A model generated the notes under the pieces. That model did no database searches, was not told the DNA's origin, and saw nothing but the letters and a program-made list of their open reading frames with translations. From Dendrolimus kikuchii (lineage: Eukaryota; Arthropoda; Insecta; Lepidoptera; Lasiocampidae): a DNA stretch of 64,000 bases. Within the stretch, counting starts at the first letter, position 1; each line of letters opens with the position of its first letter. The translations under genes were made by a program, and so were the position numbers. Below are positions 6,580-43,897 of the stretch, one piece after another. The stretch lies in the NCBI GenBank assembly GCA_019925095.2, contig CM034389.1:17161435-17225434 (forward strand), read 5' to 3'.

Positions 6580-9500
6580 ATGGATTTGTTTGTGTTGAAC
6601 AGGTAACTGCTTACACTTCATAATTGTTATTATTTTTGCCTTCATCACTCACTTTTTTTTATTTTTTTTTATTGCAGAAGATCAGCAGACAGGCAGACGG
6701 CCCACTTGATGGAAAGCGGCTACCATCGTCTATGGACATTTGCAACACCAAAGGTGCTACAAATGCGCTGCTGCTCTCTTAAGGGAGACTGGAACCTGGT
6801 CACTAATGCCGGAACACAACTCAAGGTTGTTATGGCGACATACTTTAGACCAGGGGTGGTAGCCATCCAGTCGGGCACATGCCCTACCACCTGGCTGTGG
6901 GTTGTTAAGTCGCCTCTTACGACAGGCCGCCCGGCCGCAGGAAATTGTATTCTTTCTTCGTTCCTGCACAGATAGATATATATTCTTCTATTTTATAATT
7001 TCAGATATAGGGATACAAGTGAAGTAGTCGATTTAATGACACAAGAAAGTGTCCATCTAGAAAAACTGAAGCAAAAAATTGAAGAAAGAAAAAAACTACA
7101 TGCTACAAATAAAGAGTCGGACATTATAATCATAAAACAACCGCAGCCCAAAGAGGATCAAAGAGATACCGAACTTAGTCTGCAGGACATAAAAATTGTA
7201 GAAGATGAAGAAAATAATAATGAGGATAGGGAACTAACAACTAGAGACAAACCTTTGAAAGAAAAATCATTATCTGAATTTAAAGTTCTAGGTACTAATG
7301 AGTTTAAGAAAAAGATAAAGGTGAGATTGAATTTTTGGCACAAACAATGTTTTTCAAAGCTGTTCTCATTTAATCATTGATTTAAATAGCAATTAATCTC
7401 AAAAGGCTATAATTTTTAAGCATAGGAATATATTGATAATTAAATTGGACCTATGAAATATTGCAAACTTGTATTTTCATGCATCCCATGCTTTTTTATA
7501 ATAATATTGTCTAAACGTCCCCACACTAAATATTTTCTAGCTTTTAGCTTGATTTGCTATCCAAATGTGTTTTTTTTAAGTACAATTTATTTTCTTGGAA
7601 GAAATGGTTGTCTTTAATTTTAAAACACTTAATATTTATTCATTAGTGATAAACAATACCATATTTTGTAATTACAGGTATCAAGAGTCTTGCCATATTG
7701 GTTATCCCATCCACTAAATGTGTCAACAGACTTGCAAAACTTATCCAAACCTATAGAAGAGGAAGATTGGCTACACAATACCTTGAGAACTACCTTGAAA
7801 AATGAAGGCCTATCGAGCTTATTTCCTGTTCAGAAGCAAGTCATACCATTTATATTGAAAGAATATAAAGTTTCACATGTATTAAGACCTCGTGATATTT
7901 GTGTTTCTGCTCCTACCGGCAGTGGGAAAACATTAGCTTTTGTTTTGCCTATTATTCAGGTAAAGATTTAATAAACCATTTGCACTGTTTTAACTGCTTC
8001 GTTTAACATGTTGGACTTGGGCTTGCATATTGTGCCTCTGTGTTGCCGTTTGCCCCTCCTGCCCTCTGATATGATGCTGATGCATGGGCCGATCATCTAC
8101 TCTCACGATAATAAAAGGTGGAGTGGCAGCACAAAAACTGTGCATCACACTCACATTTGCCACTGTTAGTTTCAATATTACAAATTAAATACTAGTAAGT
8201 ATTCTGCCATGATTATAATAATATTTTTATAATCATGGTAGAATACTTACTAGAAATAACAAAAAAGTAAATCTAAAACAGCTCCTAATACCTGAATTTC
8301 TAGTAGTACCCAGAGAGTACCACATCATTGTTTTCCCACTTTTTGATATAAAAGAGTCACTAAAAGTTATAATGAAAGTTTTATTATTAAAAAACATATT
8401 TTTGTACTGCAACATAGTCAAAATTTTAAAGTACTAAACTTCACACAAAAATGAAGGGGGCAAAAATATCCCAAATTTGGGGTGATTTTCAAAATGCTGT
8501 AACTTAAAAAAATAGTTGTGCAGCAAATTTAAAAAAAAAATATAGCTCATGTCTAATTTTTGGAAATAAAGTTCAAAAAAATTTTTTGAAAAAATTTTTT
8601 TGAGTAATTTTGAGATAACCACAGTAGAAAAAAAACATCTTGTTCTTTTTCTTTTTGATGGACTTGGAGGACTTGGAAAAAAATTCATAACTTAGCCTAG
8701 ATCAAATCATAGATCAAAAAGAAACAAAAAAAAAATAGTTTTTGTCAGTGATTTTCTCAAAATTCAAAACATCACAGGTTATGTTGAAAAAATGCACACA
8801 TGTCGTAAATGAAGCAACCTGATCCTTGCACGATGATTGATGTACTACCTACTCTGGGATAACGTTACAGATTTAGGCCATGTGGCGCAGATGTGGCGAT
8901 GGGTGTAATGTGTTATTTGTGATCTAATTGGTTTGACATTATCGCAGAGGTGGCCCCCAGCATAAAAATTGGAGTTGCTAGAGTTTAGACAAAGCGAAAA
9001 TGGCACCCCCATTATTTTCTACTTTAATTTGCCACACAGTAAATACATTTTTCTATACTATTTCCATTTCTTTATTTTCTTGATGACAATTCTAATTTGA
9101 TAGTTGTAGTGTTGTGACCAAATAAGTAATGATATTGATCGCATATATTTATTATATTTTGAACAAAGACAAATATAACAAAAACATTCAAATATATTTT
9201 TTCAAGCTGGGAACACTCAATGGCCCACCGCCATTTTGTGTTTGTTTTAATCTGTCACTTGCAACAAGACGTCGTGCTATTTAGTCACTACATTGCTGTT
9301 TACAATATTTTCCTGTAATATGGAAGGTCTCGAAAATCATAATGATATACAAAATGGGTAAACCACCTAATGATGTAGCATCATATAGACCTATTAGTTT
9401 GCTACCAGTTTTGTCAAAGGTCTGTGAGAAGATAATACTGCGTAGAATACTGCCTTTACTTACTGAATTGAAGATTATACCTGACCATCAGTTTGGCTTC

Positions 9501-12500
9501 CGGAAAAGCCATTCTACAGTGGAACAAGTACATCGAGTAGCTGACAAAATCAGAGAGGCCTTAGAAAAGAAAGAGTATTGCTCTTCAGCCTTTCTTGATG
9601 TACAACAGGCTTTTGACAAAGTGTGGCATAAAGGACTGTTATCTAAATTAAAAATGTATTTACCCCATAGTTACCATCTGCTCATGCATTCATATCTATC
9701 GGATAGACTATTCCAAGTTCAAGAATCAGAAGAAAGCTCAGAACTACATAAGATCCAAGCAGGAGTACCCCAGGGTTCAGTTTTGGGTCCAGTGCTCTAT
9801 ACTATATACACTGCAGACCTACCAGAGGTTGCTGGAGTAATGACAGCTACATTTGCTGACGATACTGCACTACTAGCCACTAGCAAGGATCTTAACTCTG
9901 CATCTGAACAGCTACAAAAAGGACTAGACGAAATATGGCGTTGGCTTAACAAATGGAAAATAAGGGCGAGTCCATCGAAATCTCTACACATAACATTCAC
10001 ATTGAGGAAAGGAGACTGTCCTCCTGTACATCTTGGAGAGAATATTTTACCACATAGTGACAGAGTTAAATATCTGGGAATGCATCTTGACCGCAGATTA
10101 ACTTGGAAGTATCATGCTCAAACCAAGAGGGACGAGATGAATCATAAGTACAAGACTATGTTGTGGTTACTTGGACGTAATAGTAAGTTGTCTATAGACA
10201 ACAAGCTGCTTATATATAATATGGTACTAAAGCCAATATGGACATATGGGATTCAAATCTGGGGTAGTGCAAGCAACTCTAACATTTCTATGATCCAAAG
10301 ACTGCAAAATGTCATACTACGCACTATCTCAGGTGTAGCCTGGTATATAAGAAACAGCGAGATTCACGAACATCTCGGAGTAAAAACAACAAAAGAAAAA
10401 ATTCGAGAACTTGCTAAGAGTTACCAATGTCGATTGGCTCTGCATGTAAATAAATTGGCAGTCAAGTTAATGCAGCGTACGTACCCATCTCGGCTGAAAA
10501 GGCATGATATCCAAAAGTTACAGGAGAGGACTTCTCCATAAAACAAAGAGTAGTGTTCTCAATGGAGAACACACTCATTAATAAAAAAAAAATTAGCACA
10601 AGCCATTCATTTAAAGTCGGGTTGCGACTGATTGTGGATATTTAAAAAAAAAAAAAAAAAAACATTGCTGTTCGCTGGGTTTTTTCACATTATCCATACG
10701 TTACATTGTGTATTTTGTGTTCCTCCGTGTTGATTGCTGCCCAGCTGTCAAATATCAAAATGCCTAAAGGATCTGTTCTGATAAGGCAGGCGAGAGAATT
10801 GGTAATTAAGGTTCGTAATTACTTTAAAGCAGAGTATCAAAATGGTGGCCCGCTATTACCACTGTCACAAGAGCGAGAGCGTGTTGCGGCCGCATTAGGA
10901 ATTAGTGGACTGTTTCGGATAAACGTAAAATATTAATGGAGCGTCACGACTATGCTATGGTTCGCTGTGAATTTTTGATCGAAGCCAGAAAGATATCAGA
11001 TTGGTCAAATGTTATTTTCACTGACGAGACTTGGTTAAAAGCAAACCACACAGTATCTAAGAACTGGACTGACGACACCGCCGCTTCCACTAGATCAGTG
11101 CCAATGGGAAAAGGTGAACGCCTTATCATATGCCATGCAGGGTCTACGAAAGGATTCGTGTCAGATGCTTTACTGGCCTTTAAATCCAAGAAAACAGTGG
11201 ACTACCAGGAAGAAATGAACGCGGAGATTTACGAAGGATGGTTTAAAGAAATTGTGCAATCTCTGGAAGAACCGTCGATAATTATTATGAACAACGCTAC
11301 ATATCACTCTAGACAAATTAATAAAATGACGCAGGCCAATAAAAAACAAGAGATAATTGACTGGCTCCAACGTCATGGCGAAAATGTGAATAATACTTTA
11401 TTAAAAGTACAATTAGTGAATATTTTAAAATCGAAAAAAAGCCTCCCTAAAAAATATATTACCGACGAAATAGCTGCCGAATGTGGTTATTGGGTTCTTT
11501 GACTTCCGCCGTATCATTGCCAATACAATGCTATAGAAGTATAGAACTAATATGGGCACAAATCAAAGGACACGCCGTTCGAAACAATACCCATCCCCCT
11601 TTTACTTTTGAAGTAACCGCCGAACACTGGGAAAAAATTGTGAGAAGAACTCAAAACATTATAGCGTCGGATTGAGAAATTCATGTGGCATTCAATAACA
11701 TAGAAGTACAGGAACTTATAATAAATGTTGGGGAGAGCTCATCGAGTGACAGTGACGATTCATCAGATTTTGATTAAGATAAATAAATAAAGAATCAACA
11801 TAATATAATTACATCCTGTAATGAAATGTAATATTAGTTAAAAAATTTGTACAAAATTATCCAGCAATAGTTTAGTTTCTTACACTTTGTAAAAAAGTAT
11901 CGGGTCTGTTATCGTGTTACGTTTATCGATAGCTCCATCCCTGTTAGTTTCTCCGACTCTGCTATGACCTTGTATGTGCCTAAGCGTCATATTTTTATTA
12001 AATAATGTATACATAATGTAAAAAAGACGCTCGTTCAAGTTTCCACAAGTGCTGTCATTGAGAAAATAAAGAAATGGAAATAGTATAGTAAATAAGAAAC
12101 TTTATATAAGATCAAAGAATAACATATTATTATTTAGTAATAAGTTTAAGAATAAAGATCAGACAAAAATGTATCCTTGCCTCTGGCAGTTTTACTTACC
12201 TAAAAGAAAAACCTCTTAATTTTCAGATATTAATGGGTGAAGTTGGTTGCTTTATCAGAGGTTTAGTGGTTTTACCAGTACAAGAATTAGCCACACAAGT
12301 TGCTAAGGTTTTTAAAAGATATTGCTTTAAAACTAGACTCAGAGTGGCCCTTTTAAGTGGTTCAGTTCCACTACAACAAGAACAACAAAAGATTGTTAAA
12401 TATAGTAAGTATTTTAGGAATAACCCACCATTTTCATTATCATAAAAATACTGTTTAGAATTTAGATAGATTACTGAAAATATTTTAATTGTATTTATAA

Positions 12501-19205: not shown

Positions 19206-19249
19206 GTGGTAACCACAAATTACTATGGATTCTACGTATGTGGTAACCA
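19206..19249 (+). repeat. Ultra-short 26-bp insertion, copy 1, with direct repeats
   Basis: The 26-bp unit (CACAAATTACTATG then GATTCTACGTAT) at 19214-19239 is flanked by GTGGTAAC at 19206-19213 and 19240-19247. The direct repeat extends to GTGGTAACCA on both sides. Two substitutions relative to the copies at 29544, 37931 and 38287. Confidence 0.75.
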
Positions 19250-22315: not shown

Positions 22316-23714
22316 TCAAGAAACAGGTAGACTTATTTTTCTTAAAAAGTTGTATGCTTTCGGCGAATAAAAGTGCAAAGTCAATGCAAAAGCTATGATG
22401 TCAACACTATATGTAATTTTTTTTTCTTGTTTACTCTACTAAGTTTCTGAAATTTTTCACAAATATTAGTAGTTGCCTGGCAAAATATTTTCAATTTTAG
22501 ACTGTGATGTATAATCCTGGACCACATTTATGAGCGATATCATATCACTAATTTTTAGCTCTTGTCTCTTCACCTTTTGCTGCAATATTTTTCTACTCTT
22601 CTCTAAAGATTGCTCCAGTGATGTCTTGAAGTTTACTTGAACATTAAAATCTTTCAAAGCACGCCGTTTGTATGGTGGTTAATTTTCAATATCCTGTCGA
22701 AAATTAATTTAGAGTCAAAAATGTCCAATGGCTATTTCACTTTCATTGTTTTTTATTTTCATGAGTGGAAACTTATAAAAATGTAATTCACAGAATACTG
22801 TCTATCTAATAAGATAATTTGCTAATATAAAAGTTTGTTCCCTTACAATATCTTGTTTTGGAAATAGCATTAGGGGAACATTATCATTGACAGCTGTATG
22901 TGATTGAGTCCATGAAGTTGATGGGACATTAACATAATCCTGAAATTAAAAATGATTTATAGAGGTATACATTTTTCATAAGAACATAATAATATATACT
23001 ATAAAGACCACAAATGTTCTTATCCAACACTTACCACCACATTGCAACATTTACACAATTGATATGAGTAGAATGGTACAGCATCTTTTAGCGGACAACC
23101 TGGCCTTCTAGTTATAGTCTGCATTCTTAAAATGAAGACTACAAATCTTCGCAGATTCATAAATTTTTCCCTTTAATGGTACTACAGATAACCAAGCATT
23201 CCTCTTGTTTGGATCTTTAGGGAAACTGTAAATAGAAATAAAAAGAAAAATAGTAGAAATGTTCAAAATTAGGCTATAAACTATTTTTAATAAATCATTT
23301 TGCTCATTTAATTCACAATGTTTTAAAATCTTGGATCTTCATTATGTCGATTAAAAGGTACACCAAGACTACAAGCACTACATATCCGTAAATACTTTAA
23401 ACAGGAAGTTTTTATCATTAGACCAATTTTTAAGAATAAGAAGCTTGTCACCCTACTCCTCTTGTTTATGTATAGTTTACAATACAATAAATCGTATTTA
23501 ACTGCATATTAGTAGAATAATTCGCTGTGGGAGATGATGCAAAGAAAGTGTCGTCAATTTCTGTATGTGTTATTATAAAATAGCAAGACTTTTAGTGTTA
23601 ATTTCCCTAAAATGTTAATGTAACTCAAAAATAATTTAATTCAACTTACTTGCGGAATTTCACGCCTGATGTTGGATGCCAAACACTTTTGCAACCACGA
23701 ACTACACAACTCAT
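22316..23714 (-). pseudogene. P-element-like THAP transposase relic (THAP9 type)
   Basis: Minus-strand exon remnants with GT-AG borders: 23714-23650, 23225-23035, 22939-22847, then 22693 downward. Exon 1 reads MSCVVRGCKSVWHPTSGVKF and exon 2 FPKDPNKRNAW and AKICSLHF, together the C2CH THAP zinc finger. An AVP-type box (PLKDAVPFYSYQ) follows, but in another frame after a 1- or 2-nt shift near 23105. Exon 4 has an early TAA (22681-22679), then the coiled coil QQKVKRQELKISDM. Further on, after stops and a frame change, AFALTLHFYSPKAYNFLRK (about 22395-22340) matches the conserved segment of P-element/THAP9 transposases. A host THAP gene is less likely because of that segment. Sequencing error could explain one lesion but not all. 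Confidence 0.8.
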
Positions 23715-24120
23715 TCTAGAATATCACTTAAAACACACCATTTATCATATAAAATCTCAGTTATACGATCGAATTAGACGAAACTCATAAACTAACTTTT
23801 TGACAGGAAGCCATATCTAGTTTCAGTGTTGCCAAAGTAGATTTTTAATTTTTGACGAATGTTGGGGACAACTTTGTGAAATAATATTGTTATAATATTT
23901 TGAATCAAAGGAAAATTTCCTTTTTATTTAATAAAAGATTCCATTACATAGAACTAATCCCTGTCTATTGTTTGCAAATAAAATAAAAACTTTTCAAATT
24001 TTATAATAATTTCTTAGAACTGATGGAAATTGACGAATTTTTTTACTTTTATATATATGTCGGCGCGAATATGTTACTTAATTTATAGATGACGTAAGAA
24101 AAAGGATAATTTAAGTTCTC

Positions 24121-27830: not shown

Positions 27831-28744
27831 TTTTCACGGATACATGCATGAAATTTCAAAGGAAGGTGTAATCTATTTAGCGCTACAAAGTTATATTGTG
27901 AAATTAGGAAAACATTAAAGACTAGTAGTGGTCATCATAAATGCAACTAAGGGTTGAAACGTGCTTTATTCAGGGTCTTGCTACAGTTGTGTAGGTTATT
28001 TAGATCTTTAATAAAGTCAATAAGTGGTAAATTTTTGGTCGCAAACTACTGAAAATTGTTTCCCCTTTCGCGAAAATTTCTGAAATAAAGATCTACAAGC
28101 TCAATTTATTTCAGAATATTTCATAAGTTTTATAAAATATTCAACAAAAATAATTTGTAATGAATATCCGTTAAATAGTTTTTGAGATATAAGGTATTTT
28201 CGTTAAAATGCTATTTTATAGTTCCGTAGCTACATATCCGTTATTTGGCATAGGGAACGTTGGTCACCACTTCGAAAACCTTTATGTACATGAATTGCCA
28301 AGCATTTACCCAATTCGTTTACTGTTGCAATACTAGAAAAACACAAACAGTATCTTATGAAGGCATTTTGTCGACTCTTCAATATTTTAATACGAATTAT
28401 GGCATCTGAAATTAACTAGGCGACAACACGCCTCTATCGTGGTTCAAGCTCTCTACTGTAACGATTTACGGATTTTATTCCGTTTCCATATAAAAAGTCT
28501 ACCGATCGGTTAGAAAATCCCATGGACCTCTATAATTCCTACTTCAGTGGAAAATACCTCCCATCGGTACTTGGTAGTTTCATGTGTAACCAGCTACGAA
28601 TCATTATAGAAACATTAGTAGAGTTACCAGGCGTTAATATTCTAACTGTCGGTATGAAAAACAAATCGTTTTGCAATATAGAAACTAGCCTTTATTTGAC
28701 AACCATTAGTCCACTGGCTAATGGATGAGGACCGCTGACGGCCA

Positions 28745-29535: not shown

Positions 29536-29577
29536 CTGGTGTTATACGTAGTATCCATAGTAGTTTGTGCTGGTGTC
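29536..29577 (-). repeat. Ultra-short 26-bp insertion, copy 2, upstream of KNTC1
   Basis: The unit at 29544-29569 (on plus: ATACGTAGTATCC then ATAGTAGTTTGTG) is identical to those at 37931 and 38287. Flanks are CTGGTGTT (29536-29543) and CTGGTGTC (29570-29577), 7 of 8 matching. It ends 148 bp before the KNTC1 start codon. Confidence 0.75.
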
Positions 29578-29717: not shown

Positions 29718-32700
29718 ATGTCATTTACTCATTCCCAATTAATAAAATATCAAACTGCCTTAGACTTAAAATCTCATTTGAATGCTGAAATCTTCTACCC
29801 AAAACTAGTAATATTTGAAGATGTTTGGAGATTTCGTATTGTGGATTTGACAAGCCATGAAGTAGAAGAATGTCATATGGACGAGGAGATTGTGTATAAA
29901 CGAATATTGGATGGGTTGCTATGGATTATTCTTAAGTCTGGTCAAATTATTTTAATGAACATTCTTACTAATGCAACACTAAAATTAATAACGAATCTTA
30001 GGATTCATAGTATTCAATTAATTATGGGTTTATTAATACTCCGCAGTAAAAGTGAAGAATACTATGAAATGCCATTCACAACTAAAGATCTGCAAGATAA
30101 AATTTCCGATGGCTTAAAAGAGTTGGTTGTCAATTTGAAAATTACTAAATTGGGTCAAAATAATAAACGTAAAGAAATAAAAATTGAATCAAATGAATTG
30201 CTAACTTACATTGAAAATGGAACATTAAAAGTGAAATGCCCAATTACAGGATTGATAACGTCTATTGATTCAGATTTAAGTTTGGAATATTTACTTACAT
30301 GGGAAGAAAACCTGATTTTATCAAACAAATTTCAAATGTTTATCATAGATTCATCACAGTCTAGAGTAGTGTACACTTTTGAAAGTACTGAATCAAAGTA
30401 TTACCCTGTCGGTATAAATGATGGCTGCCTTTATTATTTAATTTGGAACAACAATGAGGTAGGTGTTTTTACATTGTATGGCATAATTTTAACTTTGTTC
30501 TTAAATAGTACACAATTATTACTTCTTAGAGGTATTTAACAAAATTGAAAACAATTATGGTACATTTTTATATAACTTCTAAAAAAAAGGTTGCGGTATA
30601 GATATACTGCACATTTATTTATTACTTGAGATATAAAATTAATTTTGGGTGGTTATAAAAAAAAACTACAAAGGCTAAGGCGGGTGAGAAGCGAAACGGA
30701 GCACCCGCCTAAGCATTCTAACCTATATTAAGAAAGTTCAGATTTATTCATAATAAATAAATGTGCCGTGTATCTATACCCATCCAAAAAATGTTCTAGT
30801 TACATACAAAAGTCATATTTTGTACTAGGACATGCCCACAACTTCATCCATGCTCGATTTGAAATTCCTGCAGGATTCTTGAGACAAAGTATCACATTCA
30901 CAACACTTAAAAAGAATATAAGTCATTGTTTTAGTGAGAACCATGTCAGAATAAGCAATATTTTTTGCATCCAAACAAATAGAAACTGCTCCCAGAAAAA
31001 TTCCTGGCATAAAAAATAGCTATCGATCAGTGAAAAAGTCACATTGGTATTTGATTTATTTTTATCTGGCTATTTTAAATCATTCCTAGAAAAATTCCTG
31101 TGGTATTCCCATGATAAAAGCAGGGCTGATTTCATGTCTAATAATCGGCACTACAAATCTGGCCAGTAGTAAAATGAAGTTATATTTTTTTTAAATTTTG
31201 GATTATCTGTAATGTTTCATGAGAATCAGTTGAATGGTAAAATTGTTTTAAATATATAAAGCCCCTTTTTGTATTGACCTATATTACATGTGTCATGTCT
31301 TTTTAAAGAACTTTATTTTGTTATCTAACATGTCTCCCTTGAATATAAATTTGGAAGGTTATTTATAAGGACTGTTTTTTTATTGCCTAAAGCATGGAAA
31401 GAGGTAGACGGCCTACCTAATTGAAAGTGCTTTACTATATAATCTATAGATGCCTGCAACACCAGGACTATTGAAGGCTCATAAAGCAGCGGGAAAACCC
31501 AGGCGGAAAGTTCCCTCCAGATCATTGTTGAAAGAATAGCTCTGTTATGACTGGATAAATTGACTAATATAAATAATGTTTTCAGGTTCAAGTGTGGTGT
31601 ACCTGGCTCTCTTCAAGCATTGGTGACCAAGACAAAAATTTAAATAATTTCAGTCAATTACTTTTCTCACAAGAAACTCTAATTAGCCAACTTAAGAGCC
31701 TGGTTGATTCAGTGTTGTCAGACCCCAAAAATCTAAATATTAATGTAGAAATGCAAGAGTTGTATGACAAGATTAATGATTTTAGTTTTCTCATTGAAAC
31801 AAGCATAAAACTATGTAAGCATAGTCTTCTATATAAATCACTTTTATACCCCCTGCAAAAGAGAGTTTACCAGTTTGGAACTCCTGATTTGATGGCACTG
31901 TTATTAGATTTGATTATCAAAGTTGATTTATTAGAATACATCATCTTTAAAGGAAATAAAAGCTATGAAAATGTAAAGTTATTTGAACAAAACTTTAAAG
32001 AGCTTTGTGTAATGTTCATTTCCAAATCTGATATAGACTTAGCATCTATTTGTTGGCTTAAATATTTTGAAATAAAAATTGAGCTTTCACCTGATGATAT
32101 TTTAGATATACTAAATGCTATACCACATAATACAAAAATGGGTGCTATCATAATTTGGTTACAACATTTTGTCCCACCACTACTTGAATACAACCCATAT
32201 AATATAGATTTATTTGTGAGATGGACTACAAATAGAGTATTTAAATTGGAACAATCTGGATATTGGCCAAAAATAGGGATTAAGTTTTTAGAAGAGATTA
32301 TAAAGGTTTTAGAAAAATCATCTAAGACAATTACTATTAGACCAATCTCAATGGATGATTTAGACATGCTACTAAATCATGTAAAATATATTCTGGAACT
32401 TAAGGACAATTGCAAAATTAATATGCTTTTAAGTGAAATAACTCTGGGTCCTCAAGAAGTTGCTTTGATCATGTTGCGGCGCTGTTATACTGATGATTTA
32501 GAGGCATTTTTACAAAATTATTTACCTGCCTATGCAATCCAACACTTATTGGATATAGATGACATCTTGAAGGGTTTCATTGAGAATGAAATTGCTTATT
32601 GTGGTGGTCAAGTCGATGGTATAAGGTTAAAAGTTTTGCTAAATGCATTTCACTCTCTCACAAGTAGATTGAACTGTTTGCTTCAAGTTTTGAAAGTGCT

Positions 32701-35700
32701 TGATGTTCCATGGCATCCAACTATACTAGAATTAGCAATTTCTGCAGCCACATCTGTCAATAAAGACTTCACAATGTCTGATAAGGATCATATGCTTGCC
32801 AAAGAAATTCAAAAAGAACTTATTTATTGCAAGGTTAAAGTTGTTATGAAAAAGTACAACTTTCCATTGACATTTATAGATTACAAATTAATTCTTCACA
32901 AGTTGATCAGTGCTCCAAAAGTAGATTTAAATGATTTAAATGTAATAACCAATGTGATGACTTGCAATGTTAACTATGGCCATATTTTATATATAAACAG
33001 GTGTCTCCAAGACTGTGAAATTAGAATTGCTTTAAATTATTTCAGAGAATTGTCAAAGATAGAGAAAGCCTTAGTCCTGAAGACAGTATTGGCTAAATTA
33101 GAACAGATAATCAGTAAGAGTTCAAGTAATCATACCTTAGAAAGAAATTATTTAGATTTCATAAAAGGGACTCAGTGTTTAAGCGAAGTTCAATTTCGCG
33201 ACATTGAACTTTTATATCATCATAAGAATAATAAAAATATAAATACACATTATGAGAATAGTAAATCACAAGAATTACTCGTTTTGTTGCATCAAACCTC
33301 AACTAGCCAACAAGTTCGTAGATTCGTTTCCAATCTTTTATGTACTAATAAAATCTCACCAGAAATAATCATTGATGAACCTTCAAGTTTGCGTGATTTC
33401 AAAGACGGGCAAAATTTAGTACTTTTAGTAGAGGCATGGAAGGTCCTTATTGAAGTCTTAGAAAAGTGCAAAGAAGAACATTTACATGACATAATAATAC
33501 AGGTTTACGAACTAAGTGCTATAATAAATTCCACAATTGTTGTAAAAAATTTATCAATTGCATGGAAATTTCACTATATTCATTTACCTATTTCATCAGC
33601 ACCAGCACTTAATGAATTAATTGATTTCTATAGTATCCACCAACTTGACAAAAAGTTGGATACAGATGTATCAAGTATTAGCAAGTGTGACATTATCTTA
33701 CTAAGACTGGTTTCAATTGCTTTGAATACTACAACTGATTATTCCTATTCAACTGAATTATTAATGCTGTTGCAAAATAAAGCTGCAAGAAGGCTCTTGT
33801 CACAAATTGTTTCTTCTCAAAACATTGATGAAATCTTTGTGACTTCTTTATTACTTGCATCAAGAACGGATGAAGAAATTGATAACAGATGGATATTGGA
33901 CGCTCTACAAGGCCATAACGAGAATATTTCCCCTAATATAAAATACTTCTTATCTTCTGCCCCAATTCAACGAACATTTGAACTAAATTCTGATATTTTT
34001 GGAAACACAGTTTCATATTCCCCACATCACATTCTAAAAATCAAATTTAATATTAATTTATCTGAAATTGCTATACCTGAAAATACAGAAGAGACTTGGG
34101 ATGTCAAAGTAATATTATTCTATGTTCTAAAACAACGTCCATATACTAGGTTTACTGAACTCCTTGAATATTGTCATGCTTTGAATATTCCATATGGTGA
34201 AGGCTTGTCTTTACAATTAATATCATTAATTTCGAATTGGAACTTGAACTATAAAATATTTTACGATGAATTAGGTCAACGCCAAGTGGAAATTGAAGAT
34301 GACGAAAATAATTTATATACCACATGCCATGCTGTTTGGGAAAGTATTGAGAAAAAAGATGTTATAAGAGATGTATTAAATGATTTCTGGAAAAATGGCG
34401 AAATTACTCTACATGGTCGAGTGATATCAATAAATCCATATTTCTATGAGGTATTTTTATGTATCTATCGCCTAATTTTTGGCTCAGGTATTGAATCAAA
34501 AAATCTAAAAGAGTATTTCTTGCTCAGTTTTTTAAAAGAATACCGACGAAAAAGTACACCGAAACAATATGAATTAGAAATATTTTCAGGGGCAATTTTT
34601 CCTGAAATTGGATATTTCCGTTTACCGTTCCATCTATTCATGCGCGACGATAAATGGGCAAATTTAAAATCTGAAATAACTTTAGAAACATATGAACGTT
34701 GGCTTCCAGTTGTTGCATTGCTGTCCCTAGATACCGACCAACAAACTGCACGAGACATGATCTGCAGTAATGCACTTAAGCAAACAATGACTTCACGAAG
34801 ACAAACTAAAGAAGAATGTTCCAAGGATGCTGTGTCATGGCATTTGACGTCACGTGAAGAACCTCTACTACGTGCAGCTCATCGGTGTGTGACACACATT
34901 GCTAATATGGAATGGACAGGTGCCTGTCTCTTTTACTTACTTCAGGGCTGTGCGCGAGGAGCAGACCAAGTTGCTGCAGCACAGCTATGTTACCAATTTA
35001 CACAGAGGTGGACTGCTTTGCAACCAGGCAATCGTGCACTACGACAAATGGAACGTTTGTATGCAACACTTTCAACCCGTCATGCTCTTTATAAAATAGA
35101 TTGGACGTGTGACAATTTAGTTCGACTTACAAATGAACCTGCCCAACTTATTAGAGAACTATATTTACATACAGATTTTATTAAAAAAATTGCTCGCCAT
35201 AATGTGAATCGAGCTGCAAACGAAATAGCTGATAAAAATGGAATCAATATTAGTTCCATCAGGTTACAAATTTTAGAGAATATTCTTAACAAATCTAAAC
35301 AAGATTCAACAAAGAACAAGAATCAAGCCTTCTTAGACACAATAGAACTACTAACTGTAAAGTATATTCTTAAAGCTACATGTCCCAAAATGGGAGCAAT
35401 TTATCTGTCTCGCATCGCTTTTGATGATGAAGCTGATTTTAATAAAGGAAAAAAACTGAGGGCTTTGCAATGCCTAATGAGCATAGTGGAACCAGATACA
35501 GCATTAAAAGTAGCCAATCGGGAAAGAGATACTCTATGGCTATCTTTATTAGAATTGTTATGTGTAGTTAAATTGGAAAATATTGACATGCCTTGGGTAG
35601 TAGTGACATTTTTGCAGGATAAAGTATGTGCACTAAAACAGTCACTTCAAACTGTTGAAGGAAACAGTGAGGGATTAAAAATCGTTGCAGAATTGACTTA

Positions 35701-36172
35701 TTGGTTTGGCACTCCAGAAATAATTTGTGATGTAATTCTTAATTTATTACGCATTGGTCTTTATGAAGAAATCATACCATTACTAATGAAAGTGTCTTCA
35801 CCCCCTAATAATGTGCTGTCCACTGCATGGCGAGCTGTTCTTTTGTCTCCATTTCAGCGAGCAGATTACCCAATAACAGAACAGCAAAGAACTAAATGTT
35901 TAAATGCTATTAACTTGTTACCAGTCTGTCCAGTTATAAAAGATGAAGATTTGGTAGAAATATGGAAAAATTGTGTAAGATGCAAATGCTTAGGACTGGG
36001 TTGCTTATTGCTACCATATATGTCCCTAGAATGTAGAAAATCACTCAATGAACTGTCAAAAGTAGATAGAAGAAATCTTATTGTTAGTTTAAAGAATCTT
36101 CAATCTGAAACTTATCTTGTATCTGGAGCCATGAATGTTATTGAGAATTTGACACCCAGAAATTATCGTTAA
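29718..36172 (+). CDS. KNTC1: Kinetochore-associated protein 1 / Rough deal (RZZ complex), 2 exons, 1775 aa
   Basis: Large subunit of the Rod-Zw10-Zwilch complex, which recruits dynein/Spindly and Mad1-Mad2 to kinetochores for the spindle checkpoint. Exons 29718-30458 and 31586-36172, GT-AG, phase 0. The N-terminal 250 residues look like a partial beta-propeller. The rest is an alpha-helical solenoid. Diagnostic stretches near the C-terminus are RLPFHLFMRDDKW (about residue 1258), SLDTDQQTARDMICSNA, NEPAQLIRELYLHTDF (about 1430) and NEIADKNGINISSIRLQI (about 1460), which follow the order of the Rod C-terminal domain. The start has an in-frame TAA just upstream (29709-29711). At 1775 aa it is shorter than the human and fly proteins (over 2000 aa), mainly at the N-terminus, so an unseen upstream exon or a true loss are both possible. 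The related Sec39-type protein NBAS was considered; the C-terminal motifs favour Rod. Confidence 0.86.
30824..31260 (-). mobile_element. Helitron-like element H3 in KNTC1 intron
   Basis: ACTAGGACATGCCCACAACT at 30824, then AGTCATTGTTTTAGTGAGAAC and GCTATCGATCAGTGAAAAAG, colinear with 52740-53037. The right end is vague. Confidence 0.5.
31385..31470 (+). mobile_element. Dispersed lepidopteran repeat, short copy in KNTC1 intron
   Basis: AGACGGCCTACCTAATTGAA and ATCTATAGATGCCTGCAACACC match 6677-6960. Confidence 0.5.
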
Positions 36173-37922: not shown

Positions 37923-37966
37923 GTTTTAACCACAAACTACTATGGATACTACGTATGTTTTAACCA
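37923..37966 (+). repeat. Ultra-short 26-bp insertion, copy 3, upstream of ANKRD49
   Basis: Unit at 37931-37956 (CACAAACTACTATG then GATACTACGTAT). Direct repeats GTTTTAAC at 37923-37930 and 37957-37964, extending to GTTTTAACCA on both sides, all perfect. Confidence 0.8.
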
Positions 37967-37997
37967 CTTATTTTTGTTAATTATACTTTTTTTTGTG

Positions 37998-38262
37998 TGT
38001 TTATAGCTTGGCAACTAGACGTTTAAGCCAGGCGCAATTGTATTGTAGGCTACAATCGACGCCGTATAACGTAGCTCTTGTGAAAACTTGAAAGGCCACA
38101 TTTAACTATACAGTTCACATTTCTCACAAAAACACATAATTACTACTCAAAAACTATCAATATCCTACAACTATTGTTCATTTTAGAGAGATTTTACACA
38201 TTTTTAGAAAATAAAATTGCACAGCACATAGTCCCCTTTCAGATTCCGCCAAAAACTCCTTA
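37998..38262 (+). repeat. 270-bp dispersed element D, copy 1
   Basis: Runs from GCTTGGCAACTAGACG to CAAAAACTCCT and includes TTGTATTGTAGGCTACAATC. A nearly full inverted copy is at 40936-41203 and a partial one at 38925-39028. Non-coding; class unknown. Confidence 0.7.
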
Positions 38263-38278
38263 TTTTCCAGTATATAAA

Positions 38279-38320
38279 AGTACTCTCACAAACTACTATG
38301 GATACTACGTATAGTACTCT
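38279..38320 (+). repeat. Ultra-short 26-bp insertion, copy 4
   Basis: Unit at 38287-38312, identical to copy 3. Direct repeats AGTACTCT at 38279-38286 and 38313-38320, perfect and unlike the repeats of the other copies. Confidence 0.8.
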
Positions 38321-43861: not shown

Positions 43862-43897
43862 GTCATTAACATATCCATAGTAGTTTGTGGTCAGTAA
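43862..43897 (-). repeat. Ultra-short insertion, copy 5 (shortened)
   Basis: The unit is reduced to 20 bp (43870-43889, CATATCCATAGTAGTTTGTG), lacking six bases near one end. Flanks GTCATTAA (43862-43869) and GTCAGTAA (43890-43897) match 7 of 8. Confidence 0.6.

What the first reader, a model, noticed from the sequence alone, without database searches (positions are those of the whole stretch)
37923..38320. A 26-bp sequence that behaves like a mobile element: five copies, each with its own ~8-bp direct repeats
The same 26-bp unit (CACAAACTACTATG then GATACTACGTAT) is at 37931-37956, 38287-38312 and, inverted, 29544-29569 with no differences; at 19214-19239 with two substitutions; and at 43870-43889 shortened to 20 bp. 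The flanks differ between loci but match within each locus: GTTTTAAC x2, AGTACTCT x2, GTGGTAAC x2 (three perfect 8-mers), CTGGTGTT/C (7 of 8), GTCATTAA/GTCAGTAA (7 of 8). That is the signature of insertion with an 8-bp target duplication, yet the unit is far too short to be a normal MITE and lacks obvious inverted ends. hAT and P transposases make 8-bp duplications; a link to the P-like relic at 22316 is speculation. I know of no described element like this.
Basis: partly seen in the sequence, partly recalled or inferred. Interest (0 to 1): 0.87.

Follow-up and report, generated by a model that had tools for sequence, protein, structure and literature searches.

The report
Identical scars of departed jumping genes
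A 26-base sequence scattered through a pine moth's genome, mostly found between its own 8-base direct repeats, is best read as the scar left when a P-type jumping gene cut itself out, which would let vanished transposons be counted from what they leave behind.

Summary
The window is Dendrolimus kikuchii. The 26-mer occurs 1,689 times genome-wide at up to 3 mismatches, reversed-pattern control 0. Among the first 100 of 1,519 places of its left 15 bases (all 100 fetched), 69 have an 8-bp flanking repeat, 52 perfect; six of the 52 are one event copied with its host. Eight is the only repeat length that stands out. That host also exists 56 times as an empty site.

I think the unit itself is probably not what moves. 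The same genome holds 63 short sequences made of the two ends of a P-like element, 17 of them one 34-mer (17+17 nt) and 17 one 31-mer (17+14); 21 of 22 read have 8-bp repeats. That is P-element excision-scar anatomy, in which 17-nt tails make the repair product recur at unrelated places. The 26-mer fits: constant first 17 nt, variable remainder, intact repeats. Against: no parent element found, a far end unlike a P end, and neighbouring copies pointing the same way (30 of 32 pairs). Excision scar 0.6; genuinely mobile 26-bp unit 0.22.

The parts
37931..37956 (+). 26-bp unit (set 1), exact; 8-bp repeats GTTTTAAC at 37923-37930 and 37957-37964
38287..38312 (+). 26-bp unit (set 1), exact; 8-bp repeats AGTACTCT at 38279-38286 and 38313-38320; sits inside a copy of set 2
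29544..29569 (-). 26-bp unit (set 1), exact; 8-bp repeats CTGGTGTT / CTGGTGTC (7 of 8)
19214..19239 (+). 26-bp unit (set 1), 2 substitutions; 8-bp repeats GTGGTAAC twice
43870..43889 (-). 20-bp form of set 1 (CACAAACTACTATGGATATG); 8-bp repeats 7 of 8; the same 20-mer is in L053 (7 of 8), and its letters also in L034 and L074
28521..28549 (+). 29-bp scar of the P-like element (set 4): left 16 nt + right 14 nt, 1 shared; 8-bp repeats GAAAATCC / GAAAATAC (7 of 8)
38268..38286 (+). core of a set 2 copy (CAGTATATAAAAGTACTCT), cut by the unit at 38287; its own repeats would be TCCTTATT / TGCTTATT (7 of 8, by eye)
   Evidence: for the absence of set 1 ends

Best explanation
The 26-mer is an excision scar of a larger P-type DNA transposon. 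Step 1: the element inserts with an 8-bp staggered cut, making the 8-bp direct repeats. Step 2: its transposase cuts it out with the P-type offset, leaving on each flank a 17-nt 3' tail of element sequence next to the 8-bp repeat. Step 3: end joining of the two tails leaves a short insert between the repeats. As the tails are element sequence, the same product recurs at unrelated loci. For set 1 the constant side is CACAAACTACTATGGAT (17 nt); the commonest product has 9 more nt. A simple reason for its dominance would be that the other tail is CTATGGATACTACGTAT, so the tails pair over 8 nt (17+17-8=26). Step 4: where break repair does not restore the element, copies turn one by one into scars until few or no intact copies remain. 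Shown: 8-bp repeats, empty sites, recurrence, and for set 4 the 17-nt scar anatomy. Inferred: that set 1 had a P-type parent, the sequence of its second tail, that its constant part ends at 17, and the loss of the parent.
For: (1) Insertion between 8-bp repeats: of 106 distinct copies, 57 perfect and 70 at 7/8 or better; at lengths 9-13 none, at 4-7 at most 2 perfect. (2) Empty sites: 56 host copies (42 exact) with one TATAACAT and no unit against six fetched host copies with unit and doubled TATAACAT. (3) Same genome, set 4: 63 junctions between CATGGACCTCTAT and CCTACTTCAGTG; one 34-mer 17 times, one 31-mer 17 times, the other 29 in 18 forms; left retention exactly 17 nt in 26 of 63, 19 in 18 of 63 where the extra GG can be shared with or copied from the other end, less in 19 of 63; some with short templated-looking inserts. 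The pattern demands at least 13 left and 12 right nt, so deeper trimming is not seen, but longer left retention would have been. 8-bp repeats in 21 of 22 read, 19 perfect. Long copies of the left end run into a frame that begins like a THAP domain by eye. (4) The Drosophila table of P excision junctions has this anatomy: 8-bp duplication, up to 17 nt of each end, short homology or insert, two products recovered 14 times each (PMC2895639, section 7 read). (5) Set 1 variants look like end-joining products: perfect repeats around 19, 22, 23, 28, 29, 30, 31, 33 and 43 bp and 7/8 around 20, 24 and 25 bp, several with partial re-copying. (6) Repeat consensus RTnATnAY, palindromic; published motifs are GTCCGGAC for P and GTNCGNAC for hobo (PMC3276498 passages). 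(7) D. melanogaster P needs at least 138 and 216 bp of its ends, and the same passage infers about 100 bp for Anopheles (PMC1562414), so a P transposase should not move 26 bp alone.
Against: No parent of set 1: of 127 distinct exact left ends in the DNA then held, 42 lack a nearby repeat, and what these share downstream is a common repeat 20-60 bp away, nested units, a long set 4 element beside the unit (L051, L054) or about 900 bp lying on both sides of the unit (L073, L074), not an element starting at the unit. The parent of set 4 is incomplete too: no locus read holds both of its ends and Pfam gave no THAP hit for its 36-residue start. The far end of the 26-mer (GTAT) does not mirror the CACA end and does not end in TG. 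Variation looks one-sided: CACA end fixed, far end ragged; right-end-only pieces look rare (33 hits of BCTATGGATACTACGTAT; of 20 read, 9 are units with one or two substitutions and 2 more decayed units), but most of my searches were anchored at the CACA end, so this is not an even comparison. Set 1 is more uniform than set 4 (54 of 100 exact, against 17 of 63 for the top form). Set 2 has the same modal length of 26 bp (6 of 15), which two unrelated pairs of tails need not give. Neighbouring units share orientation in 30 of 32 pairs, which excision alone does not explain. Set 4 repeats show no clear RT..AY consensus (n=21).
Confidence: 0.6

Rival explanations
1. A genuinely mobile ultrashort unit: the 26-mer (with sets 2 and 3, which start alike) is a non-autonomous element with one strong end (CACA, about 13-17 bp) and a loosely defined far end, inserted in trans by an 8-bp-stagger transposase that docks on resident ends, so that new copies land beside old ones in the same orientation.
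For: High copy number and uniformity; fixed CACA end with ragged far end; sets 1 and 2 both mostly 26 bp with 10 of the first 13 bases alike (by eye); re-use of the same target 8-mer and same-strand clusters; no parent found.
Against: No inverted ends; known P and hAT ends need far more than 26 bp (PMC1562414 passage; Tol2 200 and 150 bp, PMC10368747 passage); set 4 shows that recurrent identical short sequences with 8-bp repeats can be made of element ends.
Confidence: 0.22
2. Abortive or one-ended insertion: a transposon end is joined to the target, gap filling copies the 8-bp repeat and the first 17-26 nt of the end, then the transposon is lost and the break is sealed.
For: Explains the fixed CACA end, ragged far end, intact 8-bp repeats and partial re-copying.
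Against: Predicts no fixed far end, yet 81 of 100 places match the whole 26-mer within 3 mismatches; known to me only from recall in bacteria (Tn3 family); set 4 shows both ends.
Confidence: 0.1
3. RNA-templated insertion: an enzyme makes an 8-nt staggered break and a 26-nt RNA is copied from a fixed 3' end.
For: Direction of synthesis fits the fixed start, ragged end, re-copying and same-strand neighbours; equal modal length of sets 1 and 2.
Against: The 8-bp repeat is strict and its motif palindromic, as for transposases; no such enzyme or RNA is known to me.
Confidence: 0.03
4. Chance or assembly artefact.
For: None found.
Against: 1,689 places against 0 for the reversed pattern; repeats in 69 of 100 places; empty sites.
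Confidence: 0.01

Closest known systems
P-element excision footprints of Drosophila melanogaster (PMC2895639, passages and section 7 read)
   Same: 8-bp duplication kept; insert made of terminal element sequence, at most 17 nt per side; short homologies, inserts, recurrent products. Set 4 has this anatomy.
   Different: Seen there as experimental junctions at one locus; here 63 (set 4) and perhaps over 1,500 (set 1) lie through one genome. The parent of set 1 is unseen and its far end is not P-like; the parent of set 4 is seen only in pieces.
P-MITEs of Anopheles gambiae (PMC1562414, passages read)
   Same: 8-bp duplications, P-derived, high copy number.
   Different: Copies carry inverted ends and hundreds of bp; the unit here has 26 bp and no inverted ends.
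hAT elements hobo / Hermes (PMC3276498, PMC10368747, PMC2803484, passages read)
   Same: 8-bp duplication; target motif nTnnnnAn fits RTnATnAY.
   Different: Ends start CAG and footprints are a few bp (both recalled); the hAT family search did not complete, so no hAT element of this genome was looked at.
REP sequences moved by RAYT in bacteria (recalled, no call)
   Same: Very short dispersed units of 20-40 bp.
   Different: Bacterial, palindromic, no 8-bp duplication.

Membership tests
P-type excision scar (set 4, including window 28521-28549) | flanked by 8-bp target duplication | tested here: met
   19 of 22 perfect, 2 at 7/8, 1 without
P-type excision scar (set 4, including window 28521-28549) | made of at most 17 terminal nt of each element end | tested here: met
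   left retention exactly 17 in 26 of 63, 19 in 18 of 63 where GG can be shared or copied, less in 19 of 63; right retention up to 20 where ATA is shared
P-type excision scar (set 4, including window 28521-28549) | parent with both ends and a THAP transposase | tested here: inconclusive
   long copies of the left end in L051, L053, L054 and sequence running on from the right end in L027, L028, L038, L072; no locus read with both ends; THAP-like start by eye, no Pfam hit for those 36 aa
P-type excision scar (set 1, the finding) | 8-bp target duplication | tested here: met
   69 of 100 places; only length 8 stands out
P-type excision scar (set 1, the finding) | constant part limited to 17 nt per side | tested here: inconclusive
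   98 of 100 places keep AT at 16-17, but places were chosen by their first 15 nt and 94 of 100 keep the 18th base as well
P-type excision scar (set 1, the finding) | parent element with both ends exists | tested here: inconclusive
   none among 127 distinct exact left ends nor 20 of 33 right-end places; 1,519 exact left ends exist
P-type excision scar (set 1, the finding) | element ends begin CA and end TG | tested here: not met
   the 26-mer begins CA but ends GTAT; only the 20-bp form and a 29-bp form end TG
MITE | terminal inverted repeats | tested here: not met
   no inverted ends in the 26-mer; DNA fold no better than shuffles
hAT element | 8-bp duplication with nTnnnnAn | tested here: met
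   as a tendency: T2 = T in 33 of 65, T7 = A in 41 of 65
hAT element | inverted ends of the CAG type (recalled) | tested here: not met
   ends CACA and GTAT

The most novel reading that the evidence does not exclude
The genome carries a class of ultrashort mobile units (at least three sets, about 20-26 bp, all starting CACA[A/G]A) that insert as such with 8-bp target duplications, one fixed end and one loose end, and that land preferentially beside resident copies in the same orientation: far smaller than any transposable element that I know of, and with only one real end.
Probability: 0.22. Interest if true: 0.9.

Novelty: new variant of a known kind. Interest (0 to 1): 0.66.

Why it matters
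If the scar reading holds, cut-and-paste transposons leave a countable, datable trail: one genome would record over a thousand past excisions of a family of which no intact copy has been seen, giving a direct measure of excision, repair choice and self-extinction of a transposon family in nature. It would also mean that some short dispersed repeats are scars, not elements. If the rival reading holds, the lower size limit of a mobile element falls to 26 bp with a single defined end.

Tried and rejected
Rejected: chance; tandem repeat or part of a longer repeat in the window; classical MITE (no inverted ends); simple tandem duplication of unit plus repeat (neighbours are 14-100 bp apart and never 34); presence in viruses or prokaryotes (0 exact hits in IMG/VR for the 26-mer and an 18-mer; 0 in GTDB contigs for a 23-mer). 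A scan of the window for other short units with matching repeats found only this one at 12 bp or more, plus one 12-bp low-complexity pair; it needs two copies in the window and so could not see sets 2 and 4. An early idea that the unit is a solo inverted repeat of a longer MITE was tested with the inverted-pair pattern: 4 places (each seen from both strands), three of them (L031, L033, L034) explained by eye as nested insertions, L032 not. Literature: one search found no paper with the unit's first 14 bases; in the titles and abstract starts listed I saw no 20-40 bp eukaryotic mobile unit; two searches returned mostly unrelated papers.

Full report
What the window is. The 1,526-aa frame at 31592-36172 is the kinetochore protein Rough deal and is 100% identical to K1T71_001986 of Dendrolimus kikuchii; the contig length given there equals that of contig C3 of the held genome, and the window is C3:17161435-17225434. 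The genome is 705.5 Mb (PMC8589036, search listing and passages).

The observation. All five copies and their flanks are as described. The match between flanks is confined to 8 bp: of 106 distinct copies at up to 3 mismatches in the DNA then held, 57 have a perfect 8-mer and 70 at least 7 of 8, against none at 9-13 and at most 2 perfect at 4-7. Genome-wide the 26-mer has 837 + 852 places at up to 3 mismatches, reversed-pattern control 0, and its first 15 bases 746 + 773 exact places. I fetched all of the first 100 listed places of the 15-mer, all on contig C1: 52 have a perfect 8-bp repeat, 17 have 7 of 8, 31 neither; 54 are exact 26-mers, 81 are within 3 mismatches, 19 are something else; with the repeat required at exactly 26 bp, 49 of the 81 qualify. 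Six of the 52 are one insertion multiplied with its host. Loci L001-L030 were chosen as exact 26-mers and are biased in that respect. In chance positions nearly the same test gives 0.5% perfect and 3.6% at 7 of 8.

Insertion, not ancestry. The unit sits at one point of a repeated host sequence in six fetched loci (L010, L016, L019, L020, L025, L050), always as TATAACAT-unit-TATAACAT; the host without the unit and with a single TATAACAT occurs 56 times, 42 of them exact. I count those six loci as one event.

Target preference. Over 65 distinct insertions with 7 of 8 or better, position 1 is a purine in 47, position 2 T in 33, position 7 A in 41, position 8 a pyrimidine in 46, with weaker A and T at 4 and 5 (27 each): a palindrome RTnATnAY. 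Published motifs are GTCCGGAC for P and GTNCGNAC for hobo (PMC3276498, passages), nTnnnnAn for Hermes (PMC10368747, passages). The motif alone cannot separate P from hAT.

Other short sets in the same genome. Set 2, CACAGAGTACTTTTATATACTGGAAA, has 56 exact copies of a 19-base core; of 23 copies read, 8 have perfect 8-bp repeats and 7 have 7 of 8, and its modal length is again 26 (6 of those 15). By eye it shares 10 of its first 13 bases with set 1. Set 3, CACAGAACACTAGTACTCTC, was seen with a perfect repeat once (L014) and as altered relatives in L055 and L090; its genome-wide count did not complete. Set 4 is the key.

Set 4: scars of a P-like element. CATGGACCTCTAT..(0-14)..CCTACTTCAGTG has 63 places, control 0. 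Seventeen are the same 34-mer, the first 17 nt of one element end plus the last 17 of the other; seventeen are the same 31-mer (17 + 14); the remaining 29 fall into 18 forms, some with short templated-looking inserts. Left retention is exactly 17 nt in 26 of 63, 19 in 18 of 63 where the extra GG can be shared with or copied from the other end, and less in 19 of 63. The pattern cannot see trimming below 13 and 12 nt, but would have seen longer left retention. Of 22 read with flanks, 19 have perfect 8-bp repeats, 2 have 7 of 8 and 1 has none. Long copies of the left end (L051, L053, L054) run into a frame beginning MPVCSVIGCGIRKTPNQSSLTIHRY (L054; L053 and L051 differ slightly), which looks like the start of a THAP domain, the DNA-binding domain of P transposases (by eye; Pfam gave no hit for the 36 residues). 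Sequence running on from the right end is in L027, L028, L038 and L072. No locus that I read holds both ends, so the two are joined only through the 63 junctions. P transposase cuts 17 nt inside the element end (PMC7776569, passages), and Drosophila excision junctions have this anatomy, two products being recovered 14 times each (PMC2895639, section 7). One set 4 scar is in this window at 28521-28549. In L140 a set 1 unit carries the 17-nt right end of set 4 between doubled ACTATGGA (by eye). So, on this reading, P-type excision in this moth leaves short, recurrent, identical sequences between 8-bp repeats at unrelated loci.

Applying this to set 1. Its first 17 nt are CACAAACTACTATGGAT; 98 of 100 places keep bases 16-17 and 94 the 18th, the first 15 being the search word. 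Between perfect repeats, lengths of 19, 22, 23, 26, 28, 29, 30, 31, 33 and 43 were read, and 20, 24 and 25 between repeats with 7 of 8, some with partial re-copying. The P-type cut leaves the double-stranded edge of the flank exactly at the 8-bp repeat, so a scar that has lost one tail still has intact repeats; this would explain the ragged far end (inference). A second tail CTATGGATACTACGTAT would pair with the first over 8 nt and give 26 as the dominant product (inference). The prediction was tested with BCTATGGATACTACGTAT: 33 places, 20 read; 9 are units with one or two substitutions, 2 look like more decayed units, three (L118, L120, L134) have 13-16 nt of the CACA end followed by the full 17-nt second part (L118 with two bases between), one (L122) is a hybrid with set 2, and five are orphans; no full-length parent appeared (my reading).

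What does not fit well. No parent was found among 127 distinct exact left ends; the 42 without a nearby repeat share downstream a common repeat, nested units, a set 4 element beside the unit (L051, L054), or about 900 bp on both sides of the unit (L073, L074), but no element that starts at the unit. The far end GTAT is not P-like. Neighbours within 150 bp point the same way in 30 of 32 pairs (inverted-search loci L031-L034 and duplicate loci L007, L018 left out); among the first 100 places 19 lie within 100 bp of another against 0.05 expected, 10 of 10 such adjacent pairs on the same strand. New copies land on or next to the CACA end of resident ones and re-use the same or an overlapping 8-mer (L077, L080, L085, L089; my reading). 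Short-range, orientation-keeping re-insertion of a departing element would give this, but so would docking of a transposase on resident ends. Sets 1 and 2 sharing the length 26 is also unexplained.

Verdict. Confirmed and enlarged as an observation; most likely excision scars of P-type elements (0.6), with a genuinely mobile 26-bp unit as the chief rival (0.22). Haplotype or sister-species comparison at the 1,689 places would decide it.

Noticed in passing
window 37931-37956 with repeat 37989-38260; L002, L009, L017, L045, L071 (two), L075, L077 (three), L084 (two): Of 131 distinct units, 13 lie within 100 bp of the T-rich start of one common repeat (GCTTGGCAACTAGGCCTTTAAGCC) on the same side and strand, about 0.5% expected; only 1 in the other three arrangements. 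Unexplained.
   Followed up: partly
L095, L101, L102, L103, L106, L112, L047, L105; window 38268-38286: A second short set (set 2, 26 bp, starts CACAGAG) with its own 8-bp repeats; one copy sits inside a set 1 unit (L106), and one set 4 scar (L158) appears by eye to sit inside a set 2 unit.
   Followed up: yes
L014, relatives in L055 and L090: A third short set, CACAGAACACTAGTACTCTC (20 bp), perfect repeats GTATTGAT in L014.
   Followed up: partly
G000 contig C1: The first 100 15-mer places (0-36.9 Mb) are unevenly spread: 55 of 100 lie beyond 30 Mb.
   Followed up: no
window 22316-23730 (-): THAP-type relic (PF05485 on one piece of three tested from it); its ends were not found.
   Followed up: partly
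window 9342-10541 and 10936-11502: Reverse transcriptase (RVT_1) and a DDE_3 match below its curated cut-off, remains of other transposable elements.
   Followed up: no
L031-L034; L022: Rare inverted pairs of the unit 48-60 bp long in all, three of four explained by eye as nested insertions; L022 is a unit inside an inverted partial copy.
   Followed up: partly
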